Part shown: in pieces, positions 3,257-22,125 of the stretch
Numbering within the stretch: position 1 is the first letter of the stretch
Layout of the letters: each line of letters begins with the position of its first letter
From: a virus
IMG/VR virus record: IMGVR_UViG_3300005836_000008
Span: 1-22,684 of that record
Strand: one strand, 5' to 3'
DNA length: 22,684 nucleotides
Notes under the pieces: generated by a model
Database searches by the model: none
What the model was told of the DNA's origin: nothing
Seen by the model: the letters and a program-made list of their open reading frames with translations, nothing else
Position numbers and translations under genes: made by a program

Positions 3257-4228
3257 TCAGCGCGCGCGCGCTTGCGCGGCCGACAGGCGGTTGATGAGGT
3301 TCTGGCGTTGCGCGATCAGATCATCACGCTGCGCATGACGCGGATCGGCCATCGCATCCTTGAATGCCTGGCTGGCCTCCAGCTTCTTGAGTTCGGCATC
3401 GAGCGTCGCGGCGCTTTCTCCGACCCCGCCGCCGCCGGTATTGGCGACAAGGTTTTCCTCGCCAACCATTTCGCCGACCTTGTTGAAGTGCTCCAGCAAC
3501 CAAGGACCGCCCATGACCTTTTCGAGCGCGGCACGCTGATCAGCGCCGATGCCGAAAAACGTCACGGCGCGGTTGGCAATTTCGGTCTTGCGCGTCTTGT
3601 CGGCGCCCCACTTGGTATCGAGCGCGGTTTGCAGTTCGGCTTGCGACTTCGCGCCCTTGACGGCGGTTTGGTCGATCAGATCCACGAAATACTTGAAACC
3701 GTCCTCGTAAATACCCTGAGCCTGCGCCAGCGGCACCTTGCGCGCGTGTGCGCTCTTGGCGATAGCCTGCTGAAACCCCTTGTCGATGATGATGCCTTCC
3801 TTGACGTCTTTCGGATCGGCGATCACATATTTTTTTTCATCCGCGACCCAGCCCAGCTTTTCCCAGCCATTCCAATCATTCAGTTTTGCCGGGTCCGGTA
3901 TTTCGAGCACGTTGCGTGCGCTCGCCATCTTGTCGGAATTCACCGCCGATTTCACCAGCGTGTTGAAATCGGGGAAATTGCGATCGGTGAGAAACTTGGC
4001 CGCGTCGGCATCGGGTTTGAGCGCAGCAAACCACGGCTCGCCGCCGCCCTGCTGGCCGCCGCCCTGCTGGCCGCCACCTTGCTGGCCGCCACCTTGCTGG
4101 CCGCCACCTTGCTGGCCGCCGCCTTGCTGGCCGCCACCTTGCTGGCCGCCACCTTGCTGGCCGCCGCCACTTTCGTTGGCCGCCTCGAACGCTGCGCCCG
4201 ATAACAGATATTTTCTCAGCATGTCCAT
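3257..4228 (-). CDS. Capsid assembly scaffolding protein with a GGGQQ repeat
   Basis: The 323-aa product sits between portal and capsid genes, the standard position of the podovirus scaffold. It has a short N-terminal helix (MDMLRKYLLSGAAFEAANES), eight exact GGGQQ pentapeptides ending in GGGEP, then a charged, mostly helical body ('DADAAKFLTDRNFPDFNTLV', 'KGFQQAIAKSAHARKVPLAQ') and a C-terminal coiled-coil-like Lys/Gln/Arg-rich helix ending in ARAR, as scaffolds use a basic C-terminal helix to touch the coat protein. AGGAG precedes the ATG by about eight bases. The repeat is a glycine-glutamine flexible linker. The function call is from position and composition. Confidence 0.72.
   Translation of the reverse strand: MDMLRKYLLSGAAFEAANESGGGQQGGGQQGGGQQGGGQQGGGQQGGGQQGGGQQGGGQQGGGEPWFAALKPDADAAKFLTDRNFPDFNTLVKSAVNSDKMASARNVLEIPDPAKLNDWNGWEKLGWVADEKKYVIADPKDVKEGIIIDKGFQQAIAKSAHARKVPLAQAQGIYEDGFKYFVDLIDQTAVKGAKSQAELQTALDTKWGADKTRKTEIANRAVTFFGIGADQRAALEKVMGGPWLLEHFNKVGEMVGEENLVANTGGGGVGESAATLDAELKKLEASQAFKDAMADPRHAQRDDLIAQRQNLINRLSAAQARAR
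4041..4169. repeat. Tandem 15-bp repeat, 8 copies, coding GGGQQ
   Basis: A 15-bp unit (plus strand of the form GCTGGCCGCCACCTT or GCTGGCCGCCGCCCT) repeats at exact 15-base spacing, with the CTGCTGG/TTGCTGG step at about 4050, 4065, 4080, 4095, 4110, 4125, 4140 and 4155. Units differ only at a third-codon position (GGC or GGT) and at one further wobble base (CAG or CAA). The unit length keeps the reading frame, so copy number can change without breaking the scaffold gene. Confidence 0.9.
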
Positions 4229-6445: not shown

Positions 6446-6955
6446 TTAACCTACCCTTGCCGGCGCGGCGTCAATCGCCGGGCGCCAGACCGCGTTGACC
6501 CAGCCCCAATAACCAAAATCCTCGCCATTGTTGCCGTAGGCGCGCGCGAGGCCTTCGCAGGCAAAGCCGAGGCCGTGCAGCCAGCGCGCGGACGCCGCAT
6601 CTGCCGCGCCGGTGAATTCGACGCGGCGGAATTTTGTCATCACGTCCGGCACGAAAACGCGATGCCACCAGCGATGCGCCGGCAAGGCGATGGCCGGGAA
6701 ACCATCATTGGCGATGAAAATCATGCTGCCGCGGCCGGGCGCCGCCGGCAGCACGCCGACCAGTAGCGCGGCGGCGGCATCGTCGCCGGCCAAAACATGC
6801 AAACCGGCGATTTGCGGCGCGGCCGCGATCAGCATGTCGGCCAGCGCCGCGCGGTCGGGCACGAAGCAGTTGCCGAAGATTTCGAGCGCACTCGCCGCCC
6901 GCATGGTCAAAACGACATGGCGGATGAGGTCGGGGCTGGCGGCGGGCAGTTTCAT
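6446..6955 (-). CDS. GNAT-like acetyltransferase-fold protein (169 aa)
   Basis: The C-terminal half has the look of a GNAT fold: 'RVEFTGAADAASARWLHGLGF' at about 111-131 followed by 'CEGLARAYGNNGEDFGYWGW' (133-152), matching the usual 'vea.n..a.rwle.lGF..Eg..r.yg..G.df..y' pattern. The N-terminal half (LTMRAASALEIFGNCFVPDR) is less clear. The ATG at 6955 overlaps the terminase stop by ATGA; an upstream open stretch in the same frame is only a shadow of terminase. Podoviruses often carry a small GNAT-type protein in the head module, some of them packaged in the virion. Acetyl-CoA use and target are unknown. Confidence 0.65.
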   Translation of the reverse strand: MKLPAASPDLIRHVVLTMRAASALEIFGNCFVPDRAALADMLIAAAPQIAGLHVLAGDDAAAALLVGVLPAAPGRGSMIFIANDGFPAIALPAHRWWHRVFVPDVMTKFRRVEFTGAADAASARWLHGLGFACEGLARAYGNNGEDFGYWGWVNAVWRPAIDAAPARVG

Positions 6956-8625
6956 CGCGCCGCCGCCCGGCGATGCGGATTGTAGCGGCCCGTGGCGCGC
7001 GCTTTCTGGCGGGCTTCCATGAGCTCCTGCTGGCGATCGGTCTTGCGCTTGCGCGTCACCGCGCTGCCGCACTCCAGCGCCGCCGCCATCAAGGCGTCCA
7101 TGATGTGCGTGCTAAAATCCTTGGCGATCGAACCGCGATCGGTGGCGCCCTGATTTTTGATCTGGTGGTAGCGATACGAGCCGTTGAAGCCGCGGCGCAG
7201 CACCACGCATGACGGGTCCAGCAGGATCATCGGCTTGCCGGCCTTAATCACCATCTTGTCTTTGATGGCCTGATGCCGGCTGTCGAGATTATTGGTGCGC
7301 GCGAGATTAACCTCGCGGCCGAGATATTTCGACAGCTTTTTGCGGTCGGAACCATCGGCCGTGTCCTCGCCTGACTTCATCGACGGGTCGCAATAATCGT
7401 CGAACTCGCAATCCTTGAAGCGCTGCGCTTCCAGCGTCGCCATGCGCTCGGAAAGCTCTTTCATGCCGCCACGCTCCAGTGGCACTTCGGCGTAGATCCT
7501 CACCTGGCCGTCCGGCATTTCCTGCATGTAGCAGGCCGCCGGCGTCAGGCCGCCGTCCTCGCCGATCAGCACCGGCAAATTTGGGTCCGGCACCAGCGTT
7601 TCGGTCGCCAGCATGGCGCGATCGTCCCACAGCGGGCCGTCCTCATTGGCGAACGGACTGTCGGTATCCATGCGAAAACCGGGCCGGTTGTGGACGTTGA
7701 TGTTGACCCACCATTTTGGATAGAGCTTCATCAGGTTGTGGTAGTAGCCGCGCCCGACGACATGGATATTTTCGGCGTCCGGGTCGAGGCCGCCAGGCTG
7801 ATTAAACAGCACATAGCCCGGCTTGGTTTTTTCGTAGAAATCGCGGTACAGCCACGACAGCGGCGACGGCGCGTTCATGTCGCCATAGATCTTGCCGTAG
7901 ACAAAATCGGCCGGCATTTCCGGGTAGAGCAATTCGCGCGGCGGGTCGCGGCCCACCACGGCGCCGAGCCACATAAATAATTTTTCCGGCAAAGTATCGA
8001 TCTGGTTGAGAAGCACATCGGTGCTTTCATTGCCGAGCGTGTCGTCGCTGTTGGCCTGATCGCCGAATGCGCGGAAGCGCACGATAATCTCGATCGGGCC
8101 GAACTCATCATTAAAACACAACACATGCGTGGCCGGGTGCGGCTTCGAGCCGTTCCACTTCGAGCCAGGCAGATCGGCCGGAAAAAGTTTCCACCACGAC
8201 GATATTGCGGCGTCCCAAATGTTGGTGTACTTTTCGCGCCAGACGCTCACTGCATAGCGCCGCACCCCGTCTGCACCGGGACGAATGCCTTGGCCTTCAT
8301 AAACAACTTTTTTGAACGTCACCGTCGTTTTGGCCGAGCCGCGCGGCCCGACAATCACGCCGACCGGCACGCTCGACAGCAGATAACGATCCGCAATCGG
8401 GCCGGGAGAGCGCGTGAAATCGACGCGAGAGCCGGGCGTGTAGGATTTTCCGAGCGCTTGTGCTTCGCGCCGCTCGCCTTCGATAAACGCTTCGCGCATT
8501 TCCGGCCGCGCCGAGACGTCGCCGCCGCCGGCCACCACGTCGATCGAGCGCAGCACGTTGCCGTGCGGATCGGCGCCGCGCAGATGCTCCCGCAGAGATC
8601 CGAACGGTTGAGGGCCGCCCGTCAT
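6952..8625 (-). CDS. terL: Terminase large subunit
   Basis: The 557-aa product is the DNA-packaging motor. The ATPase half has a Walker A, GPRGSAKT, at residues 93-100 and a 'TDVLLNQIDTLPE' segment at 202-214 in the place of Walker B/'LNEA'; the usual Glu is Gln (208). The nuclease half shows the RNase H-like acidic triad: D357 in 'IGEDGGLTPAA', D413 in 'YCDPS' and D510 in 'HIMDALMAA'. Length is normal for podoviruses. The start ATG overlaps the stop of the frame upstream by ATGA, and the stop overlaps the GNAT-like gene the same way. The N-terminal 70 residues are Gly/Arg-rich and may contact the small subunit. Confidence 0.9.
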   Translation of the reverse strand: MTGGPQPFGSLREHLRGADPHGNVLRSIDVVAGGGDVSARPEMREAFIEGERREAQALGKSYTPGSRVDFTRSPGPIADRYLLSSVPVGVIVGPRGSAKTTVTFKKVVYEGQGIRPGADGVRRYAVSVWREKYTNIWDAAISSWWKLFPADLPGSKWNGSKPHPATHVLCFNDEFGPIEIIVRFRAFGDQANSDDTLGNESTDVLLNQIDTLPEKLFMWLGAVVGRDPPRELLYPEMPADFVYGKIYGDMNAPSPLSWLYRDFYEKTKPGYVLFNQPGGLDPDAENIHVVGRGYYHNLMKLYPKWWVNINVHNRPGFRMDTDSPFANEDGPLWDDRAMLATETLVPDPNLPVLIGEDGGLTPAACYMQEMPDGQVRIYAEVPLERGGMKELSERMATLEAQRFKDCEFDDYCDPSMKSGEDTADGSDRKKLSKYLGREVNLARTNNLDSRHQAIKDKMVIKAGKPMILLDPSCVVLRRGFNGSYRYHQIKNQGATDRGSIAKDFSTHIMDALMAAALECGSAVTRKRKTDRQQELMEARQKARATGRYNPHRRAAAR

Positions 8626-9008
8626 GACGCGGCCCTCACCGTTTTTGCGCGCGCGTAATTTTTGGCGACGGTCCTCTCCCCGCGCCCCTGTTGAGGCCAG
8701 AAAATTTTTCCGCGACCTCGACCCCGATCAGCACCTCGTACACGCTGACATGGGACACACCGGCGAAGTCTCAGCCGAGCACCGGCCGGAGGCCGCGCGC
8801 GCGATTTCCGGTGGTACGGGTGGCGCGCGAGTGGGGGGGGTGGTCGCCGCGCGAAGGCGTCGCCAGGTCGCGCCGGCCGGGCAAGCAGGAGCTCCACCCG
8901 GCCGGCGCGCCGACCACCTGCCGCTGCACGGCGAGGCGCGTTGCGCACCCGCCCGGCCGGTGATTTCGGATCAGCGGCCCAAGCCGCCGAATGTCTTTTT
9001 GTTTCCAT
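8622..9008 (-). CDS. Doubtful 128-aa Arg-rich frame between the terminase genes
   Basis: An ATG at 9008 overlaps the small-terminase stop (TGATG) and the frame ends exactly at the large-terminase start (ATGA), which is what a coupled gene would show. The product, however, is Arg/Ala/Pro-rich ('RRPPPPLARHPYHRKSRARP') and looks like out-of-frame GC-rich sequence. A run of eight G on the plus strand (8833-8840) sits in the middle, so a frameshift error or slippage is possible. Neither shifted frame gave me a recognisable domain. If it is not a gene, 8626-9005 is a spacer of unknown use. Confidence 0.3.
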   Translation of the reverse strand: METKRHSAAWAADPKSPAGRVRNAPRRAAAGGRRAGRVELLLARPARPGDAFARRPPPPLARHPYHRKSRARPPAGARLRLRRCVPCQRVRGADRGRGRGKIFWPQQGRGERTVAKNYARAKTVRAAS

Positions 9009-9613
9009 CACTTAGCACTCCCGTGAGACTGGTCATCATGAGACTGCGGCGGAGCCAATGCCGAAAGCCCTTGATTTTGCTGCATTTCTCGCGCGATGCG
9101 CTCGCGCGCGTCCCAGGGCGTTTCTCCGCTGTTAACCGTGATCGCCTGGCCAGCGACGACGAATTGCATGAACGGCACCGCCTGGCCCTGGTCATCGACG
9201 AATGCCAATTTAGCGTGCAAATACGGGGCTAATTCAGATTGCAGGATCCGCCACTCGCGGAACGCCTCGATCTTGGTGCAGCCGAGCTCGGCGGCCAGCA
9301 TGTCGGGCGGCACGATCGCGTAGCGCATCAGGCTCGCCAGCGGCGAAATCCCCTTACCTAACAACCAGTTGCGGAACTCGCGCGTGGTCAAGTTCTGCGC
9401 GCCAGGCGGCCGGCCCGGCCCTTGCCGGCGCTCGATCTCGCGCTGCATCGCCGCAGCCTTCTCGGCGCCGCCGCGCGAGCGCAGCGGCACCGAAAACATC
9501 GCCAGTTGTGCGCCTTTCGCGGCCGCGGCCTGCGCTTCAAATTCGGCGCTCGCCTCGCTCACGAGCTCCCGCACAATCGCGCCTTTCGCGGTGTCGCTCA
9601 CGTCCAACCCCAT
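9008..9613 (-). CDS. Probable terminase small subunit (201 aa)
   Basis: This first gene of the late operon lies upstream of terL. The core has 'GPGRPPGAQNLTTREFRNWL' near residues 70-90, then 'DMLAAELGCTKIEAFREWRI' (a helix-turn-helix-like step) and 'SELAPYLHAKLAFVDDQGQA', the sequence style of small-terminase/DNA-binding proteins in rhizobial phages ('GRP.G..N..t..f...l', '..l.pY.H.KlP'). Its job would be recognition of the packaging site. There is no strong ribosome site before the ATG at 9613. The last 30 residues are Gln/Ser/His-rich and their DNA holds two TGAGACTG repeats, described separately. The family call is by pattern, not by a full profile. Confidence 0.65.
   Translation of the reverse strand: MGLDVSDTAKGAIVRELVSEASAEFEAQAAAAKGAQLAMFSVPLRSRGGAEKAAAMQREIERRQGPGRPPGAQNLTTREFRNWLLGKGISPLASLMRYAIVPPDMLAAELGCTKIEAFREWRILQSELAPYLHAKLAFVDDQGQAVPFMQFVVAGQAITVNSGETPWDARERIAREMQQNQGLSALAPPQSHDDQSHGSAK
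9024..9047. repeat. Pair of TGAGACTG repeats like the attP arm sites
   Basis: TGAGACTGG at 9024-9032 and TGAGACTGC at 9039-9047 are 15 bases apart. They are the reverse complement of the CCAGTCTCA repeats beside attP (21913 and 21928, also 15 bases apart), and the bases between them are similar too. They lie in the 3' end of the small-terminase gene. Confidence 0.6.
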
Positions 9614-10320: not shown

Positions 10321-12171
10321 CTACTCCGCCGCCTCTCTCCTGAATTCGTCCGCTCCTCGAGGCGCGACATCGCGCGGCGCAAAATTCGCCGTCACCAAAG
10401 CCTCGGCCATGACCGGCGACACCGAGTTGCCAACCATGCGGCCCTGCTGGTCGCCGGTGATCCGCTTCATGTTGGTTTTTCCGGTGCGCTTCTCCACACG
10501 CGGCACGTCCAGCTCGATGATGTAGCCAGGCGGGAAGCCTTGCGCGTTGAAGCGCTCGCGCGCGGTCAGCATTCGCATGCCAATATCGACGATCTGATAC
10601 TCGATGCCCTGCACCGTAACGATGCCGATGCGGTCGGTTGTATCGATCGTCGGCAGCGGCGCCGCCGGCGTTGCGAGCTGGCCTCCGTCGCGATGGTATT
10701 TTATCAGGAACGCCCGCACCTCGGCAATGTGCTTGCCCTGTGCCGTGATTGTCGGCACCGGAGCCTCGATCGCCGAGGCGCGGCGATCGCTGCCCTTAAG
10801 TGTCATCAAGCCGGCTGACACCACGGCGTTGTGATCCTGCGCCGTAATCGTCGAGACAGGTTCGGGCATAGGCGAGCCCGGCCGCTGGCCGGCATCGCCG
10901 TAGTGCTTCGCCAGGAACGCGGCGCAAAGGCTAATGCGATTGCCTTGCGTCGTTATCGTGCGGGCCGGCTCATCGGCTCCGGCGGCCGGCTTCTCGCCGT
11001 GATTGTTCTGCACCAGCACGGGCGCAATCAGCGACGCTTCATTGCCGGCCGGCACCACCACCGGCATCGGTTCCTCGATCGAGCGTGTGCGCGGCTCTTG
11101 GCCTGCCCGCTCGCCGTAGCGCGGCACCATGAACGGCGTCACCAGGCCGAGCGGCGAAGCGCCGCCAGGATGATCGTCGGAATGCGCCGAGGTGATGGTG
11201 TGCAAAGGCTCGCGCGCGTCGTGGCCGGTCGATTTACCGTTGAACTTGGTCACAAATGGCGTCACCAGCGCGTGCTCGCCGCGGTGCGCCGTTGTTTGTG
11301 TGCGCAGCGGCTCCTTTATTCCGTTCACCCGATCATCGCGCGCGTGCGTAATCGGCACGATGAAAGGCTCGGCCGCGTTGATGACGTAGCGATCTATGCC
11401 CTTGGCAATGCGCGCCATCGTGTTCGGTTTGAGCGGCCGGATGACGCGGATACGGTGATCCTGCCAGAGTTGTGCGACTTCGGCCGGCGTCAGGAAGATC
11501 GACGGGCAAGGCAGTGACCAGTCGATGATCTCTGCCGCGGCGCGCCAAGGCAGCAATCGCCCCGACTTGACCGCCTCGGATTTCGGATCGCCATGCGTCG
11601 GCGCCGGCCAAACGATCGGCAGGCCGTCGCGCCTGGCGATCAGGAATAGCCGTTTGCGGATGGTCGGCGCGCCATAGTCGCACGCGCGCAGCTCGCGATG
11701 CTCGACCTGGTAGCCGAGCGACTTGAGCTTTCCGACCCAACGTCGGAACGTGAAGCCTTTGCGATCGGGGCAAGGCCGGCCGTTCGCGCCGAGCGGTCCC
11801 CAGGTCGCAAATTCCTCGACGTTTTCCAGCATGATGACGCGCGGCTGCACCAGCCTTGCCCAACGCACCACCACCCAGGCCAGATCGCGGATTTTCTTTT
11901 CGACCGTCTTGCCGCCTTTGGCTTTGGAAAAATGCTTGCAATCCGGCGAGGCCCACAGCAGCCCGACCGGGCGGCCGGCGCAAGCCTCACGCGGATCAAC
12001 CTTCCAGATGTCATTGGAAAGGTGCCGCGTTGTTGGATGGTTTGCCAGATGCATCGCCAGCGCGATCGCATCGTGATTGATCGCAATGTCGGGCGCGCGA
12101 CCAACAGCCAATTCGATACCGGCAGATGCTCCGCCGCCGCCGGCAAAACTATCGACGATGATTTCGTGCAT
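10321..12171 (-). CDS. C5 cytosine DNA methyltransferase with a repeat-built recognition region (616 aa)
   Basis: The product transfers a methyl group from S-adenosylmethionine to cytosine C5 in DNA. Motif I is 'SFAGGGGASAGIE' (8-20), motif IV 'SPDCKHFS' (75-82) with catalytic Cys78, motif VI 'ENVEE' (116-120), motif VIII 'IRKRLFLIAR' (171-180), and motifs IX/X 'MLTARERFNAQGFP' (534-547) and 'GNSVSP' (581-586). Between VIII and IX the protein carries about seven degenerate repeats of the form 'EP..TITA...H..lv..fl.ky.g' (residues 286-515). The gene is last in the early operon, seven bases after the helicase stop, with a GGAGAGGTAAGG leader. It could protect phage DNA from host restriction. 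No partner nuclease is visible, so it is an orphan methylase. Confidence 0.92.
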   Translation of the reverse strand: MHEIIVDSFAGGGGASAGIELAVGRAPDIAINHDAIALAMHLANHPTTRHLSNDIWKVDPREACAGRPVGLLWASPDCKHFSKAKGGKTVEKKIRDLAWVVVRWARLVQPRVIMLENVEEFATWGPLGANGRPCPDRKGFTFRRWVGKLKSLGYQVEHRELRACDYGAPTIRKRLFLIARRDGLPIVWPAPTHGDPKSEAVKSGRLLPWRAAAEIIDWSLPCPSIFLTPAEVAQLWQDHRIRVIRPLKPNTMARIAKGIDRYVINAAEPFIVPITHARDDRVNGIKEPLRTQTTAHRGEHALVTPFVTKFNGKSTGHDAREPLHTITSAHSDDHPGGASPLGLVTPFMVPRYGERAGQEPRTRSIEEPMPVVVPAGNEASLIAPVLVQNNHGEKPAAGADEPARTITTQGNRISLCAAFLAKHYGDAGQRPGSPMPEPVSTITAQDHNAVVSAGLMTLKGSDRRASAIEAPVPTITAQGKHIAEVRAFLIKYHRDGGQLATPAAPLPTIDTTDRIGIVTVQGIEYQIVDIGMRMLTARERFNAQGFPPGYIIELDVPRVEKRTGKTNMKRITGDQQGRMVGNSVSPVMAEALVTANFAPRDVAPRGADEFRREAAE

Positions 12172-19576: not shown

Positions 19577-20902
19577 ATGGCCGATATCAATCTGCCGTAC
19601 ATCGATTGGCGTGAGGGGCGGCCGCGTTTTGTCGCCGGCCCCGGCGCGCGCAAGCTCGGCTTCAAGGGCGAGGACTTAAAGCACGCCGATGGCCGCTGGC
19701 TGTCGCTGGAGGAAACCGCGGCATGGGCGCAGACGCGCCAACAAGCGATCGGCGCGGCACGCGGCAGCGGCAAGAAGATCAAGCGCCCATCGCCGCCGCG
19801 CGGTCACAGCGTCGCCGATCTGCTGGAGGATTTTCTCGCCGCCTTGCAGCGCGGCGAGCCCGGCCCCAACGGCCAGCCGCTTTCGATCGACGGCATCCGC
19901 AGCTATCGCAAGGCCGCCAACGCCATCATTTATTTGCCGGAAAGCCGCGCCGACGCCAAGGCGCGCCGCGCCAAGGAGCGCGCCGCAAAATTGCTCGGCC
20001 TCGATCCGCAGGAGCGCGAGTGCGAGCCGTTCGGCCGCGCCGACATCGCCGCCATCGGCAAGGTCGAGCTCAACGAATTTTTTCTCACCGCCAAGCGCGA
20101 GCGCGGCCACCACATGGCCTTGAGCATGGTGTCGGTTTTTTCCGCCGCCTATACGTGGGGCGGCACCGCGCCGCATTGGCGGCTCGGCGCCAACCCGCGC
20201 AAGGAAATTAAATTCGCCCGGCCCGATGGCCGCATCGTCATCTACAGCGCCGAAGAATTCGCCGCCATGGTCGCGGCCGCCGATGCCTGCGGCCGTCACT
20301 CGATCGGCGACGGATTATTTCTCGGCATCGACACCGGCCAGCGCCAGAAGGACCGCTTGCGGCTCGCCGACGAAGGCATGATCGACGGCCGCCGCCGCTT
20401 CCGCCAGTCGAAAACCAAGATGGTGGTCGAGATCAAGGAGACGCGCCGGCTAGCGCAACGGCTGGCCGAGGCCAAGGCGCGCACCGCCGCGCTCAAACTT
20501 AAATTCGGCACGCGCGATATGGAAATCGTGCTCGATGAAACCACCGGCCGGCCTTACGACAGCACTACCTATCGCCACGTTTTTGCCGAGGTGCGGGCGC
20601 TGGCCTGCAAGGGCAACAATGAGCTCGGCAAGGAACCTAAATTGCCGCCGTGTCCGTCACTGCAATTCACCGATGAGCGCGACGGCAAGATCAAGTTCAA
20701 GACCGATCAGGACTTGCGCGATACCTGCGTCACAAGGCTGTACCGCGCCGGCAACGACATCATGGCGATTTGCGATATCACCGGCCACAGCTACAAGTCG
20801 GCGCAGACCATCATCGATCACTATCTGGCGCGCGACCGCGTGCGCGCCGACGTGGCGATCGATAAACTGGAGGCGTGGATGGCGAAGGAGCAGGCGGGAT
20901 GA
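19577..20902 (+). CDS. int: Tyrosine integrase (441 aa)
   Basis: The recombinase catalyses site-specific exchange between attP and attB. Catalytic residues are R256 in 'DTGQRQKDRL', K279 in 'QSKTK', R381 in 'DQDLRDTCV', H404 in 'ITGHS', and nucleophile Y416 in 'IIDHYLAR'. The first conserved His of box II is Gln (H-x-x-R reads QDLR), as in many rhizobial integrases. The N-terminal 58 residues form a small domain ('WREGRPRFVAG', 'GFKGEDLKHADGRW') that is shared with the downstream GIY-YIG-like protein. The core-binding part spans about 75-230. It reads towards the tRNA-Lys core at 21987-22032, about 1.1 kb downstream. Confidence 0.93.
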   Translation: MADINLPYIDWREGRPRFVAGPGARKLGFKGEDLKHADGRWLSLEETAAWAQTRQQAIGAARGSGKKIKRPSPPRGHSVADLLEDFLAALQRGEPGPNGQPLSIDGIRSYRKAANAIIYLPESRADAKARRAKERAAKLLGLDPQERECEPFGRADIAAIGKVELNEFFLTAKRERGHHMALSMVSVFSAAYTWGGTAPHWRLGANPRKEIKFARPDGRIVIYSAEEFAAMVAAADACGRHSIGDGLFLGIDTGQRQKDRLRLADEGMIDGRRRFRQSKTKMVVEIKETRRLAQRLAEAKARTAALKLKFGTRDMEIVLDETTGRPYDSTTYRHVFAEVRALACKGNNELGKEPKLPPCPSLQFTDERDGKIKFKTDQDLRDTCVTRLYRAGNDIMAICDITGHSYKSAQTIIDHYLARDRVRADVAIDKLEAWMAKEQAG

Positions 20903-20949
20903 TGGCCGCCTTGACAAATAACTCGGTTTAGATGCAGCCTGTGCCTCGG

Positions 20950-21090
20950 AGCATGATAACTCCTGTCACAGAGCGGTGCGCCGGCGGCCCGAAAGGTCGG
21001 CTTCCGCGACAAAGGTCCGGGGTCCCTGCGTGTATGTCCAGGGCGAAAGCCTAAAGGCGTAGGGCACTTCTCTGTGAGTGTTATCAGCCC
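20950..21090 (+). ncRNA. Probable structured RNA or leader upstream of the 72-aa gene
   Basis: In the 243-base gap after int, TGATAAC (20954-20960) pairs with 21080-21086 and TCACAGAG (20966-20973) with 21070-21077, closing a long multi-part stem. Inside are GGTGC/GCACT (20975/21064), CGCC/GGCG (20980/21056), a CCCTG/CAGGG hairpin (21024-21043), and GAAA or TAAA tetraloop-like turns (GGCGAAAGCC; GCCTAAAGGC). The last two overlap, suggesting switching. A further partial copy of the motifs (ATGATAAC, TCTCACAGAG) lies at 21103-21135. It could be a cis-regulatory element or a stand-alone small RNA. I cannot name a known family. Confidence 0.55.
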
Positions 21091-21145
21091 CGGAACCGCA
21101 CGCATGATAACCGCGCGGCTCCGCATTCTCACAGAGGAGCGGCCC

Positions 21146-21364
21146 ATGTCCGTCGTCCAATTTCCCCAACGTGAAAAGCAACTCATTGACCTCGATGTAG
21201 CGGTCATCAACATCACCGCGATCGTCGATGTTCTTAACATGGTCGATCAGGTCGAGCCCGAAAAACACCGCAAGCAATGGCGTAATGGCATCGTCTGGCT
21301 GCACGGCTGTCTTGCGGTGAGCGTGGAGCGCATAGCGCAGCTTGTCGAGAGCCTACCCCGGTGA
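21146..21364 (+). CDS. Small helical protein (72 aa)
   Basis: Start ATG 21146 has GAGGAG six bases upstream. The product is mostly helical: 'LDVAVINITAIVDVLNMVDQ' and 'WRNGIVWLHGCLAVSVERIA'. It ends in a GTGA overlap with the GIY-YIG-like gene, so the two are coupled and may act together. It follows the structured leader. No family recognised. Confidence 0.65.
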   Translation: MSVVQFPQREKQLIDLDVAVINITAIVDVLNMVDQVEPEKHRKQWRNGIVWLHGCLAVSVERIAQLVESLPR

Positions 21365-21909
21365 AGCATCCGGTGAAATACATCGTCTGGCGCGGGGGAC
21401 GGCCCAGGTTTGTGCCGGGGCTGCACCTGCGCCGGCGAGGGTTTCGCGGCGAGAATTTAATCCATCCAAACGGAGAGTGGTTCACCGCCGAGGAGGCCGA
21501 GCACTACTCGGCGCGGTTACAACAGGAAATTAGGCGCGGCCGCGGCAAGGCGCTTGCAGAAGTGCTCCGTCAAGAAAAACCGGATATCTCTTATCCGCCG
21601 CAGCCGCGGCAGCGCCGTTCACAGCGGTCATCATCAGGTCGAGTAGGCTATGTCTATTTTTTAAAATGCGGCACGGTGATGAAGATAGGCTTTTCATCCA
21701 ATCCGTTTCAGCGCCTCCGCGCCCTCAATACGGGACTGGCCAATGAGATAGATTTTTGCATAACCCGCATCGGCACCATGAAAGACGAGAAAAAATTGCA
21801 TGCGCGACTGCTCAAACACCGCTTCAAGGGAGAATGGTTTTTTTATAACAGCGAGGTCGAAGAGGTGATGATGGTCTATTTTTACGAGCTACTTTACCCG
21901 CAAAAATAG
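21361..21909 (+). CDS. GIY-YIG-like (T5orf172/MUG113 type) nuclease with an integrase N-terminal domain (182 aa)
   Basis: The C-terminal part has the GIY-YIG-superfamily layout: 'GYVYFLKCGTVMKIGFSSNP' (96-115), R118 in 'RLRALNTG', then 'EKKLHARLLKHRF' and 'GEWF' (157-160) with Glu158 in the catalytic-acid position. The N-terminal residues 7-57 align without gaps to residues 8-58 of the integrase with about half identical (shared W-R-x-G-R-P-R-F-V, G-F-x-G-E-x-L-x-H, G-x-W). The two domains are joined by a basic, Pro/Arg/Ser-rich linker (60-92). The gene starts at GTG 21361 in a GTGA overlap. It lies next to attP, so a role in attachment-site cleavage, exclusion or excision is possible. Activity is inferred. 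Confidence 0.78.
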   Translation: MKHPVKYIVWRGGRPRFVPGLHLRRRGFRGENLIHPNGEWFTAEEAEHYSARLQQEIRRGRGKALAEVLRQEKPDISYPPQPRQRRSQRSSSGRVGYVYFLKCGTVMKIGFSSNPFQRLRALNTGLANEIDFCITRIGTMKDEKKLHARLLKHRFKGEWFFYNSEVEEVMMVYFYELLYPQK

Positions 21910-21912
21910 TCG

Positions 21913-22123
21913 CCAGTCTCAAAATCACCAGTCTCATGACGTTTTTTTGTTCTCCTAAGAAGCCATTGTTATTGTGATGATTTTGCTGGTGGGCGCACCA
22001 GGGCTCGAACCTGGGACCCGCTGATTAAGAGTTAACGCGAGATCGGCCGCGCTCAAAGGCTTGCCAGTCTCATACCGCTGCTTTCCGCGGCTTTCCGCAG
22101 CGTCAGTCTCACAGCCAGTCTCA
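21913..22123. repeat. Five CAGTCTCA repeats flanking the attP core (arm-type sites)
   Basis: CCAGTCTCA occurs at 21913-21921, 21928-21936, 22064-22072 and 22115-22123, with TCAGTCTCA at 22103-22111. All are in the same direction, two on the integrase side and three on the far side of the tRNA-derived core. That layout is the one expected for integrase arm-binding sites. An integrase or the GIY-YIG-like protein could bind them. Confidence 0.75.
21987..22032 (-). other. attP core: 3' half of a tRNA-Lys(CTT) gene
   Basis: On the minus strand the sequence runs from the anticodon loop CTCTTAA through the anticodon 3' stem, variable loop, T-arm (GGTTCGAGCC) and acceptor to CCA. Left of it is integrase-side phage DNA; right of it, the D-arm and the 5' acceptor are absent and phage-like DNA continues. 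Phages often carry the tRNA 3' end so the gene is rebuilt on integration. With phage DNA on both sides it is attP rather than attL or attR. Confidence 0.85.
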
Positions 22124-22125
22124 CG

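What the first reader, a model, noticed from the sequence alone, without database searches (positions are those of the whole stretch)
21361..21909. GIY-YIG-like nuclease fused to the integrase's own N-terminal domain
Residues 7-57 of this protein align without gaps to integrase residues 8-58 with about half of positions identical. The rest is a T5orf172/MUG113-type GIY-YIG domain. The gene lies between int and attP. If the shared domain recognises arm-type repeats, the nuclease is aimed at attachment sites: to cut attP of incoming related phages, to compete with Int, or to help excision. I know of no described system of this form.
Basis: partly seen in the sequence, partly recalled or inferred. 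Interest (0 to 1): 0.82.

Follow-up and report, generated by a model that had tools for sequence, protein, structure and literature searches.

The report
Nuclease borrowing the phage integrase's DNA-reader
A temperate phage carries, between its integrase gene and its attachment site, a small nuclease whose DNA-reading half belongs to the same domain family as the integrase's own reading head; five very different phages share this design, so it probably cuts attachment sites, most likely those of competing phages.

Summary
Residues 7-62 of the 182-aa protein align without gaps to integrase residues 8-63 (48% identity), and residues 94-170 are a T5orf172/MUG113 GIY-YIG domain with its catalytic residues. 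I found four more such fusions in IMG/VR, with GIY domains only 32-40% identical. All five lie between int and a tRNA-type attP (one pair only if its linear contig is closed into a circle) and keep the GIY catalytic positions. The N-domain is a family trait of alphaproteobacterial phage integrases (113 distinct copies collected). Those integrases have clustered GTCKCAC-type repeats downstream, and two N-domain positions track the variable base of the repeat. Window Int and nuclease are thus probably both readers of the phage's five AGTCTCA arm repeats. The domain is not a recent copy of this phage's integrase: own Int ranks 40th of 113. The closest described system is Odn of phage ICP1, a T5orf172 nuclease with a borrowed RepA domain that cuts a satellite's origin; here the borrowed domain points at attP. 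Most likely it is an att-directed nuclease used against related phages, with homing the main rival. Cleavage was not testable. The operon has a conserved structured leader RNA, absent from Rfam.

The parts
19577..20902 (+). tyrosine integrase (441 aa); residues 1-65 (19577-19771) are the shared N-domain
   Evidence: Predicted fold best matches lambda Int (model 1-429 vs lambda 8-356, Z 19.6; Foldseek E 6.5e-11); invariant R256, K279, H404, Y416 in 58 relatives
20911..20916 (+). possible -35 box (TTGACA) for the small ORF-nuclease operon
   Evidence: TTGACAAAT directly after int also in L006 and upstream of the small ORF in L163; inference
20951..21145 (+). structured leader RNA: 5' copy GCATGATAAC..TCACAGAG (20951-20973), conserved core 21030-21059, middle strand 21070-21089, 3' copy 21102-21136 overlapping the ribosome site GAGGAG (21134-21139)
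   Evidence: Long conserved alignment with L006; folds (z -2.95 for the ribosome-site-hiding form); compensatory changes between window and L006; no Rfam match
21146..21364 (+). small protein (72 aa), stop codon overlaps the nuclease start (GTGA)
   Evidence: Homologue in the same place in L006 (39%), positional counterparts in L163 and L189 (16%); profile match to small ORFs behind GIY-less integrases, hhalign probability 85%
21361..21909 (+). chimeric nuclease: N-domain of integrase type + GIY-YIG (T5orf172/MUG113)
21361..21552 (+). integrase-type N-domain of the nuclease (residues 1-64), V9 and V18 at the two specificity columns
21640..21870 (+). GIY-YIG domain (residues 94-170): GYVYF 96-100, K108-I-G110, R118, E143, H147, GEWF 157-160
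21913..21936 (+). two arm-type repeats CCAGTCTCA left of the core (21913-21921, 21928-21936)
21987..22036 (-). attP core: 3' part of tRNA-Lys(CTT) plus GTTAAC
   Evidence: Sequence; same core in L006 and L223; no complete tRNA
22064..22124 (+). three arm-type repeats (22064-22072, 22104-22112, 22115-22124)
   Evidence: AGTCTCA 8 times in the window, 0.83 expected; five of the eight flank the core

Best explanation
The protein is an att-directed endonuclease. Its N-terminal integrase-type domain binds the arm-type repeats (AGTCTCA/GTCTCAC) that flank attP, and its GIY-YIG domain cuts DNA near them. The most likely use is against related phages that share the arm type and compete for the same tRNA-Lys site, as Odn of phage ICP1 cuts a satellite's origin. 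Its own attP carries the same repeats, so production is probably restrained (leader RNA, translational coupling to the small ORF) or the cut depends on sequence or state at the core. Shown by computation: domain homology, same predicted secondary structure, catalytic residues, linkage to int and attP in five phages (one by circular closure), repeat clusters, correlation of repeat base with domain residues. Inferred: binding by this protein, cleavage, the victim, protection of self.
For: Domain homology and same predicted secondary structure. Integrase N-terminus covered by the lambda Int structural alignment. C-terminus: Pfam T5orf172/MUG113 (4), BFVD best matches T5orf172 proteins, best PDB matches GIY-YIG nucleases HIGLE, Slx1, UvrC (93, Z 5.4-3.1). 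Five fusions, all between int and attP, GIY domains 32-40% identical with all catalytic positions kept. GTCKCAC clusters in 17 integrase loci, all downstream, none upstream. N-domain positions 9 and 18: both hydrophobic in 7 of 9 GTCTCAC loci and 0 of 10 GTCGCAC loci, Fisher p=7e-4 (first seen in 55). Window nuclease is V/V. L192 Int and nuclease share K/E. Nuclease N-domains resemble their own Int more than random Ints, p=0.0005, mainly from L192 and L189. Odn precedent (PMC8263062).
Against: No binding or cutting was tested. The phage's own attP keeps five repeats, unlike Odn, whose target belongs to the satellite. L006's nuclease has T9/N18 although its arms are GTCTCAC, so it may read another repeat. 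Window Int N-domain is not specially close to the nuclease's (rank 40 of 113). PADLOC has no match. The specificity columns came from scanning about 65 columns in about 20 related sequences, and the GTCKCAC pattern was chosen after looking; only two new GTCT/GTCG loci served as an independent check.
Confidence: 0.5

Rival explanations
1. It is a free-standing homing endonuclease of the T5orf172 type. It cuts the att region of relatives that lack the gene, and repair copies the gene, with the neighbouring int-att module, into them.
For: T5orf172 proteins are mostly regarded as homing endonucleases with swapped DNA-binding domains (PMC10448857). Sporadic distribution: 2 phages in a scan not aimed at nucleases that gave about 66 distinct integrases, none behind the integrases found in 397 Hyphomicrobiales genomes. 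Start codon overlaps or abuts the stop of the upstream gene in all five. Gene lies beside its presumed target.
Against: In a classical homing gene the insertion destroys the recognition site, but here all arm repeats stay intact in the carrier. The position is the same relative to int and attP in five lineages. No closely related pair with and without the gene was found to show a clean insertion.
Confidence: 0.25
2. It serves the phage's own integration cycle: it competes with or trims Int at the arms, destroys unintegrated attP, or blocks reintegration after induction.
For: Same region as int and attP, N-domain in some phages resembling own Int, structured leader that could give tight control.
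Against: Most integrases with this domain do without it. Cutting own attP would be costly. Nothing indicates a strand-transfer or nicking role.
Confidence: 0.14
3. It acts as a DNA-binding regulator or decoy at arm sites; nuclease activity is irrelevant.
For: A bound arm site alone could block Int; no cleavage has been shown.
Against: All catalytic positions are kept in five proteins whose GIY domains are otherwise 32-40% identical.
Confidence: 0.07

Closest known systems
Odn (origin-directed nuclease, gp88 of Vibrio phage ICP1; PMC8263062) and its E. coli phage counterparts (PMC10448857)
   Same: T5orf172 GIY-YIG nuclease fused at its N-terminus to a DNA-binding domain like that of a mobile element's own site-recognition protein (42% identical in Odn, 48% here); domain swaps among homologues
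   Different: Odn borrows RepA_N and cuts a satellite's replication origin, in a lytic phage; here the domain is the presumed arm-binding domain of a temperate phage's integrase, the gene sits between int and attP, and the target repeats are in the phage itself
T5orf172 homing endonucleases of phages (PMC10448857)
   Same: Same nuclease family, sporadic, adjacent to presumed target, shuffled DNA-binding domains
   Different: Those mostly use zinc-finger domains (CapR, DUF723, DUF4397) and often sit near essential genes such as terminase or nrd; none with an integrase domain was seen in the passages read
Arm-binding N-terminal domain of lambda-type tyrosine integrases
   Same: The Int N-domain lies in the lambda Int structural alignment; repeats near attP as in lambda arm sites
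   Different: No Pfam family matches this version; here it is also used outside an integrase

Membership tests
GIY-YIG nuclease, T5orf172/MUG113 type | Curated profile match above gathering score | tested here: met
   MUG113 35.7 bits (cut-off 22.3), T5orf172 27.9 (20)
GIY-YIG nuclease, T5orf172/MUG113 type | Catalytic Arg and Glu and the two motif halves present | tested here: met
   GYVYF, KIG, R118, E158 equivalents in all five members; His/Tyr of the first helix missing, as in Odn
GIY-YIG nuclease, T5orf172/MUG113 type | GIY-YIG fold | tested here: met
   BFVD T5orf172 proteins E 1e-5; PDB second look Z 5.4 At-HIGLE, 4.6 Slx1, 3.5 UvrC, only modest Z
Integrase arm-binding domain | Homology and same predicted secondary structure as the N-domain of an integrase | tested here: met
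Integrase arm-binding domain | Binds arm-type repeats | not testable with these tools
   Indirect support only: repeat clusters and residue-base correlation
Odn-type chimeric nuclease | T5orf172 nuclease plus a DNA-binding domain homologous to a mobile element's own site-binding protein | tested here: met
   paper
Odn-type chimeric nuclease | Borrowed domain is RepA_N and target is a replication origin | tested here: not met
   Domain is of integrase type
Odn-type chimeric nuclease | Target sequence absent from own genome | tested here: not met
   Five AGTCTCA repeats at own attP
Homing endonuclease | Sporadic presence among relatives | tested here: met
   L223, with Int 57% identical over full length and the same tRNA core, has no nuclease between int and core; rare among other integrases
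Homing endonuclease | Insertion destroys or separates the recognition site in the carrier | tested here: inconclusive
   All arm repeats intact, but the precise cleavage site is unknown
Homing endonuclease | Cuts the cognate allele and is copied in | not testable with these tools
   needs coinfection experiments

The most novel reading that the evidence does not exclude
A recurrent class of att-directed nucleases: T5orf172 nucleases that repeatedly take up the arm-reading domain of phage integrases to destroy or convert the attachment sites of rival temperate phages, readable through a two-residue specificity code and held in check by a new leader-RNA switch.
Probability: 0.35. Interest if true: 0.85.

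Novelty: new variant of a known kind. Interest (0 to 1): 0.7.

Why it matters
If true, temperate phages fight over, or drive themselves through, integration sites by turning an integrase's own address-reader into a weapon. It would extend the Odn principle (borrow the opponent's DNA-binding domain) from replication origins to attachment sites. It also offers a simple, testable arm-site code (N-domain positions 9 and 18 versus GTCTCAC/GTCGCAC).

Tried and rejected
Direct single-sequence scans of viral contigs and genome contigs with the whole protein found nothing; a domain alignment was needed. No PDB sequence relative, no NCBIfam or PADLOC match for the nuclease, no phage-record match to the integrase, and no phage or plasmid record matching the N-domain (GIY part only). 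Foldseek against PDB gave nothing for the whole two-domain nuclease model; the GIY part appears only in the second look. That second look lists no arm-binding domain for the nuclease's N-domain, which is inconclusive. A common origin of the nuclease N-domains apart from integrases is not seen, but the 60-residue tree (run with three of the five) is poorly resolved. The idea that the nuclease is a recent duplicate of this phage's own Int N-domain is rejected (rank 40 of 113). Unguided 7-mer clustering near integrases was swamped by GC-rich codon words, so the repeat claim rests, where GTCKCAC ranks 4th of 840 permuted patterns and is one-sided (downstream only). Papers: no report of an integrase-domain nuclease found; one known analogue found.

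Full report
Setting. The window is a 22,684-base linear IMG/VR virus record. It encodes head-tail connector, capsid, primase, C5 methylase, repressor-like and integrase genes. It ends, after int, in a tRNA-type attachment site followed by an opposite-strand gene. The 3' part of tRNA-Lys(CTT) is at 21987-22036, and no complete tRNA is present.

The observation. The 182-aa protein at 21361-21909 and the integrase share an N-domain: 27 of 56 residues identical without gaps, E=7e-15. The rest is a GIY-YIG domain of the T5orf172/MUG113 type. AlphaFold2 models have mean pLDDT 85 for the nuclease and 91 for Int, with N-domain blocks mostly near 90-98. They give the same order of strands and helices in both N-domains. 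The integrase model aligns over residues 1-429 with lambda Int 8-356 (Z 19.6). Its N-domain thus sits where lambda has its arm-binding domain, although the large rmsd shows that the domains are placed differently.

Relatives. Searches with the shared domain, rather than the whole protein, brought in many alphaproteobacterial phage and prophage integrases, 113 distinct N-domains in all. In 24 of 397 Hyphomicrobiales genomes the domain occurs, and every hit lies in an integrase-sized frame with no nuclease fused or behind it in the stretches fetched. In IMG/VR four further nucleases carry the domain: L006, L163, L189 and L192. Their GIY domains are 32-40% identical to each other. All keep the G-x-[VI]-Y-F and K-[IV]-G motifs, R118, E143, H147 and the GEWF glutamate. 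In all five the gene lies between int and a tRNA 3' end with flanking repeats (the repeats of L192 are the least clear). For L189, int and nuclease are at opposite ends of a linear contig and become neighbours only if it is closed into a circle. In four the start codon overlaps or abuts the stop of a small ORF; in L192 it overlaps the stop of int.

What the domain reads. Behind integrases with this domain, closely spaced copies of GTCTCAC or GTCGCAC, often as palindromes such as AGTCTCACGTGAGACTT, are found in 17 loci, always downstream and never upstream of int. Two N-domain positions, 9 and 18 in the nuclease's numbering, track the variable base. Both are hydrophobic in 7 of 9 GTCTCAC loci and in 0 of 10 GTCGCAC loci (Fisher p=7e-4; columns first picked out). 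They flank the W-R and G-R-P-R-F motifs, on or beside the two predicted strands, as expected of a sheet that enters the major groove (own knowledge of arm-binding domains). The pattern and the columns were found by looking, the sequences are related, and only two new GTCT/GTCG loci (L217, L200) were independent; both fit position 18. The window has AGTCTCA eight times against 0.83 expected; five copies flank the attP core. The window nuclease has V9/V18, the commonest GTCTCAC-type pair. L192 has K/E in both Int and nuclease. L006's nuclease (T/N) does not match its own arm class, so self-reading is not universal.

Origin. This is not a fresh copy of the resident integrase's domain. Own Int ranks 40, 18, 30, 7 and 1 of 113 for window, L006, L163, L189 and L192. 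Summed similarity to own Int still exceeds random Ints (p=0.0005), carried by L192 and L189. In the tree, L006's nuclease falls in a supported clade with integrases including its own, and L163's with other integrases. Repeated exchange between nucleases and integrases of the same or related phages is the simplest reading, but 65 columns cannot prove it.

The operon. Between int and the small ORF lies a leader of about 200 nt, conserved between window and L006. Its 5' half and a repeated 3' copy can each pair with the same middle strand, and the 3' pairing hides the ribosome site of the small ORF (z -2.95). The changes TGATAAC/GTTATCA in the window to TGACAAC/GTTGTCA in L006 occur in all three strands, as pairing requires. 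Rfam has no match at E 0.5. The core recurs in other contexts: L181, L182 and L268 carry it by exact pattern, MW202613 by 75% similarity over 97 bases. The small ORF resembles, at profile level (hhalign probability 85%), small ORFs behind integrases that have no nuclease.

Mechanism. Shown by computation: homology, predicted secondary structure, catalytic residues, linkage to attP, repeat clusters and residue-base correlation. Inferred: that this protein binds arm repeats, cuts near them, and does so in the DNA of competing phages. Window, L006 and L223 use the same tRNA-Lys(CTT) core, so competition for one site is plausible. Against a simple weapon stands the presence of the same repeats in the phage's own attP, so self-protection or timing is needed, and the leader RNA and coupled small ORF are candidates. 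Homing is the chief rival, because T5orf172 nucleases are mostly seen as homing endonucleases (PMC10448857).

Comparison with the known. The nearest described case is Odn of ICP1: a T5orf172 nuclease whose N-terminus is 42% identical to a satellite's RepA_N domain and which cuts that satellite's origin through its iterons (PMC8263062). The present proteins are built on the same design but fail two of Odn's defining features (RepA_N/origin; target absent from self), so I do not file them as Odn members. I found no report of an integrase-type domain on a nuclease; subscription papers are largely not in that library.

Verdict. Real, recurrent, and a new variant of a known kind. Core claim (arm-site-directed nuclease, whatever the use) about 0.75; use against related phages about 0.5.

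Noticed in passing
20951-21145: Candidate new structured leader RNA with three-strand alternative pairing over a ribosome site and a conserved core (GTGTATGTCCAGGGCGAAAGCCTAAAGGCG); no Rfam match; the core recurs in other phages (L006; L181 before a Bro-N-like gene; L182; MW202613; L268).
   Followed up: partly
21146-21364: Small ORF between int and nuclease; similar small ORFs follow several integrases of this family without any nuclease (L037, L039-L042), function unknown.
   Followed up: partly
9024-9045 (minus strand): A second pair of AGTCTCA repeats 15 bp apart, the same spacing as the left attP arm pair, at the end of the 9008-9613 ORF, next to the 6952-8625 ORF (probably packaging genes).
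   Followed up: no
L045, L056, L055, L059, L060, L101, L143, L173 downstream of int: Arm-like repeat variants (GTCGCAC; GTCACAC in L102, L118, L176) that track N-domain residues 9 and 18: a possible arm-site recognition code for a whole integrase family without a Pfam model for its N-domain.
   Followed up: partly
10321-12171 (minus strand): C5 cytosine DNA methylase encoded by the phage; could modify its own DNA, relevance to self-protection unknown.
   Followed up: no
3952-4190 (minus strand): GGGQQ tandem repeat near the N-terminus of the ORF at 3257-4228 (minus strand), between capsid-side genes, perhaps the scaffold gene.
   Followed up: no
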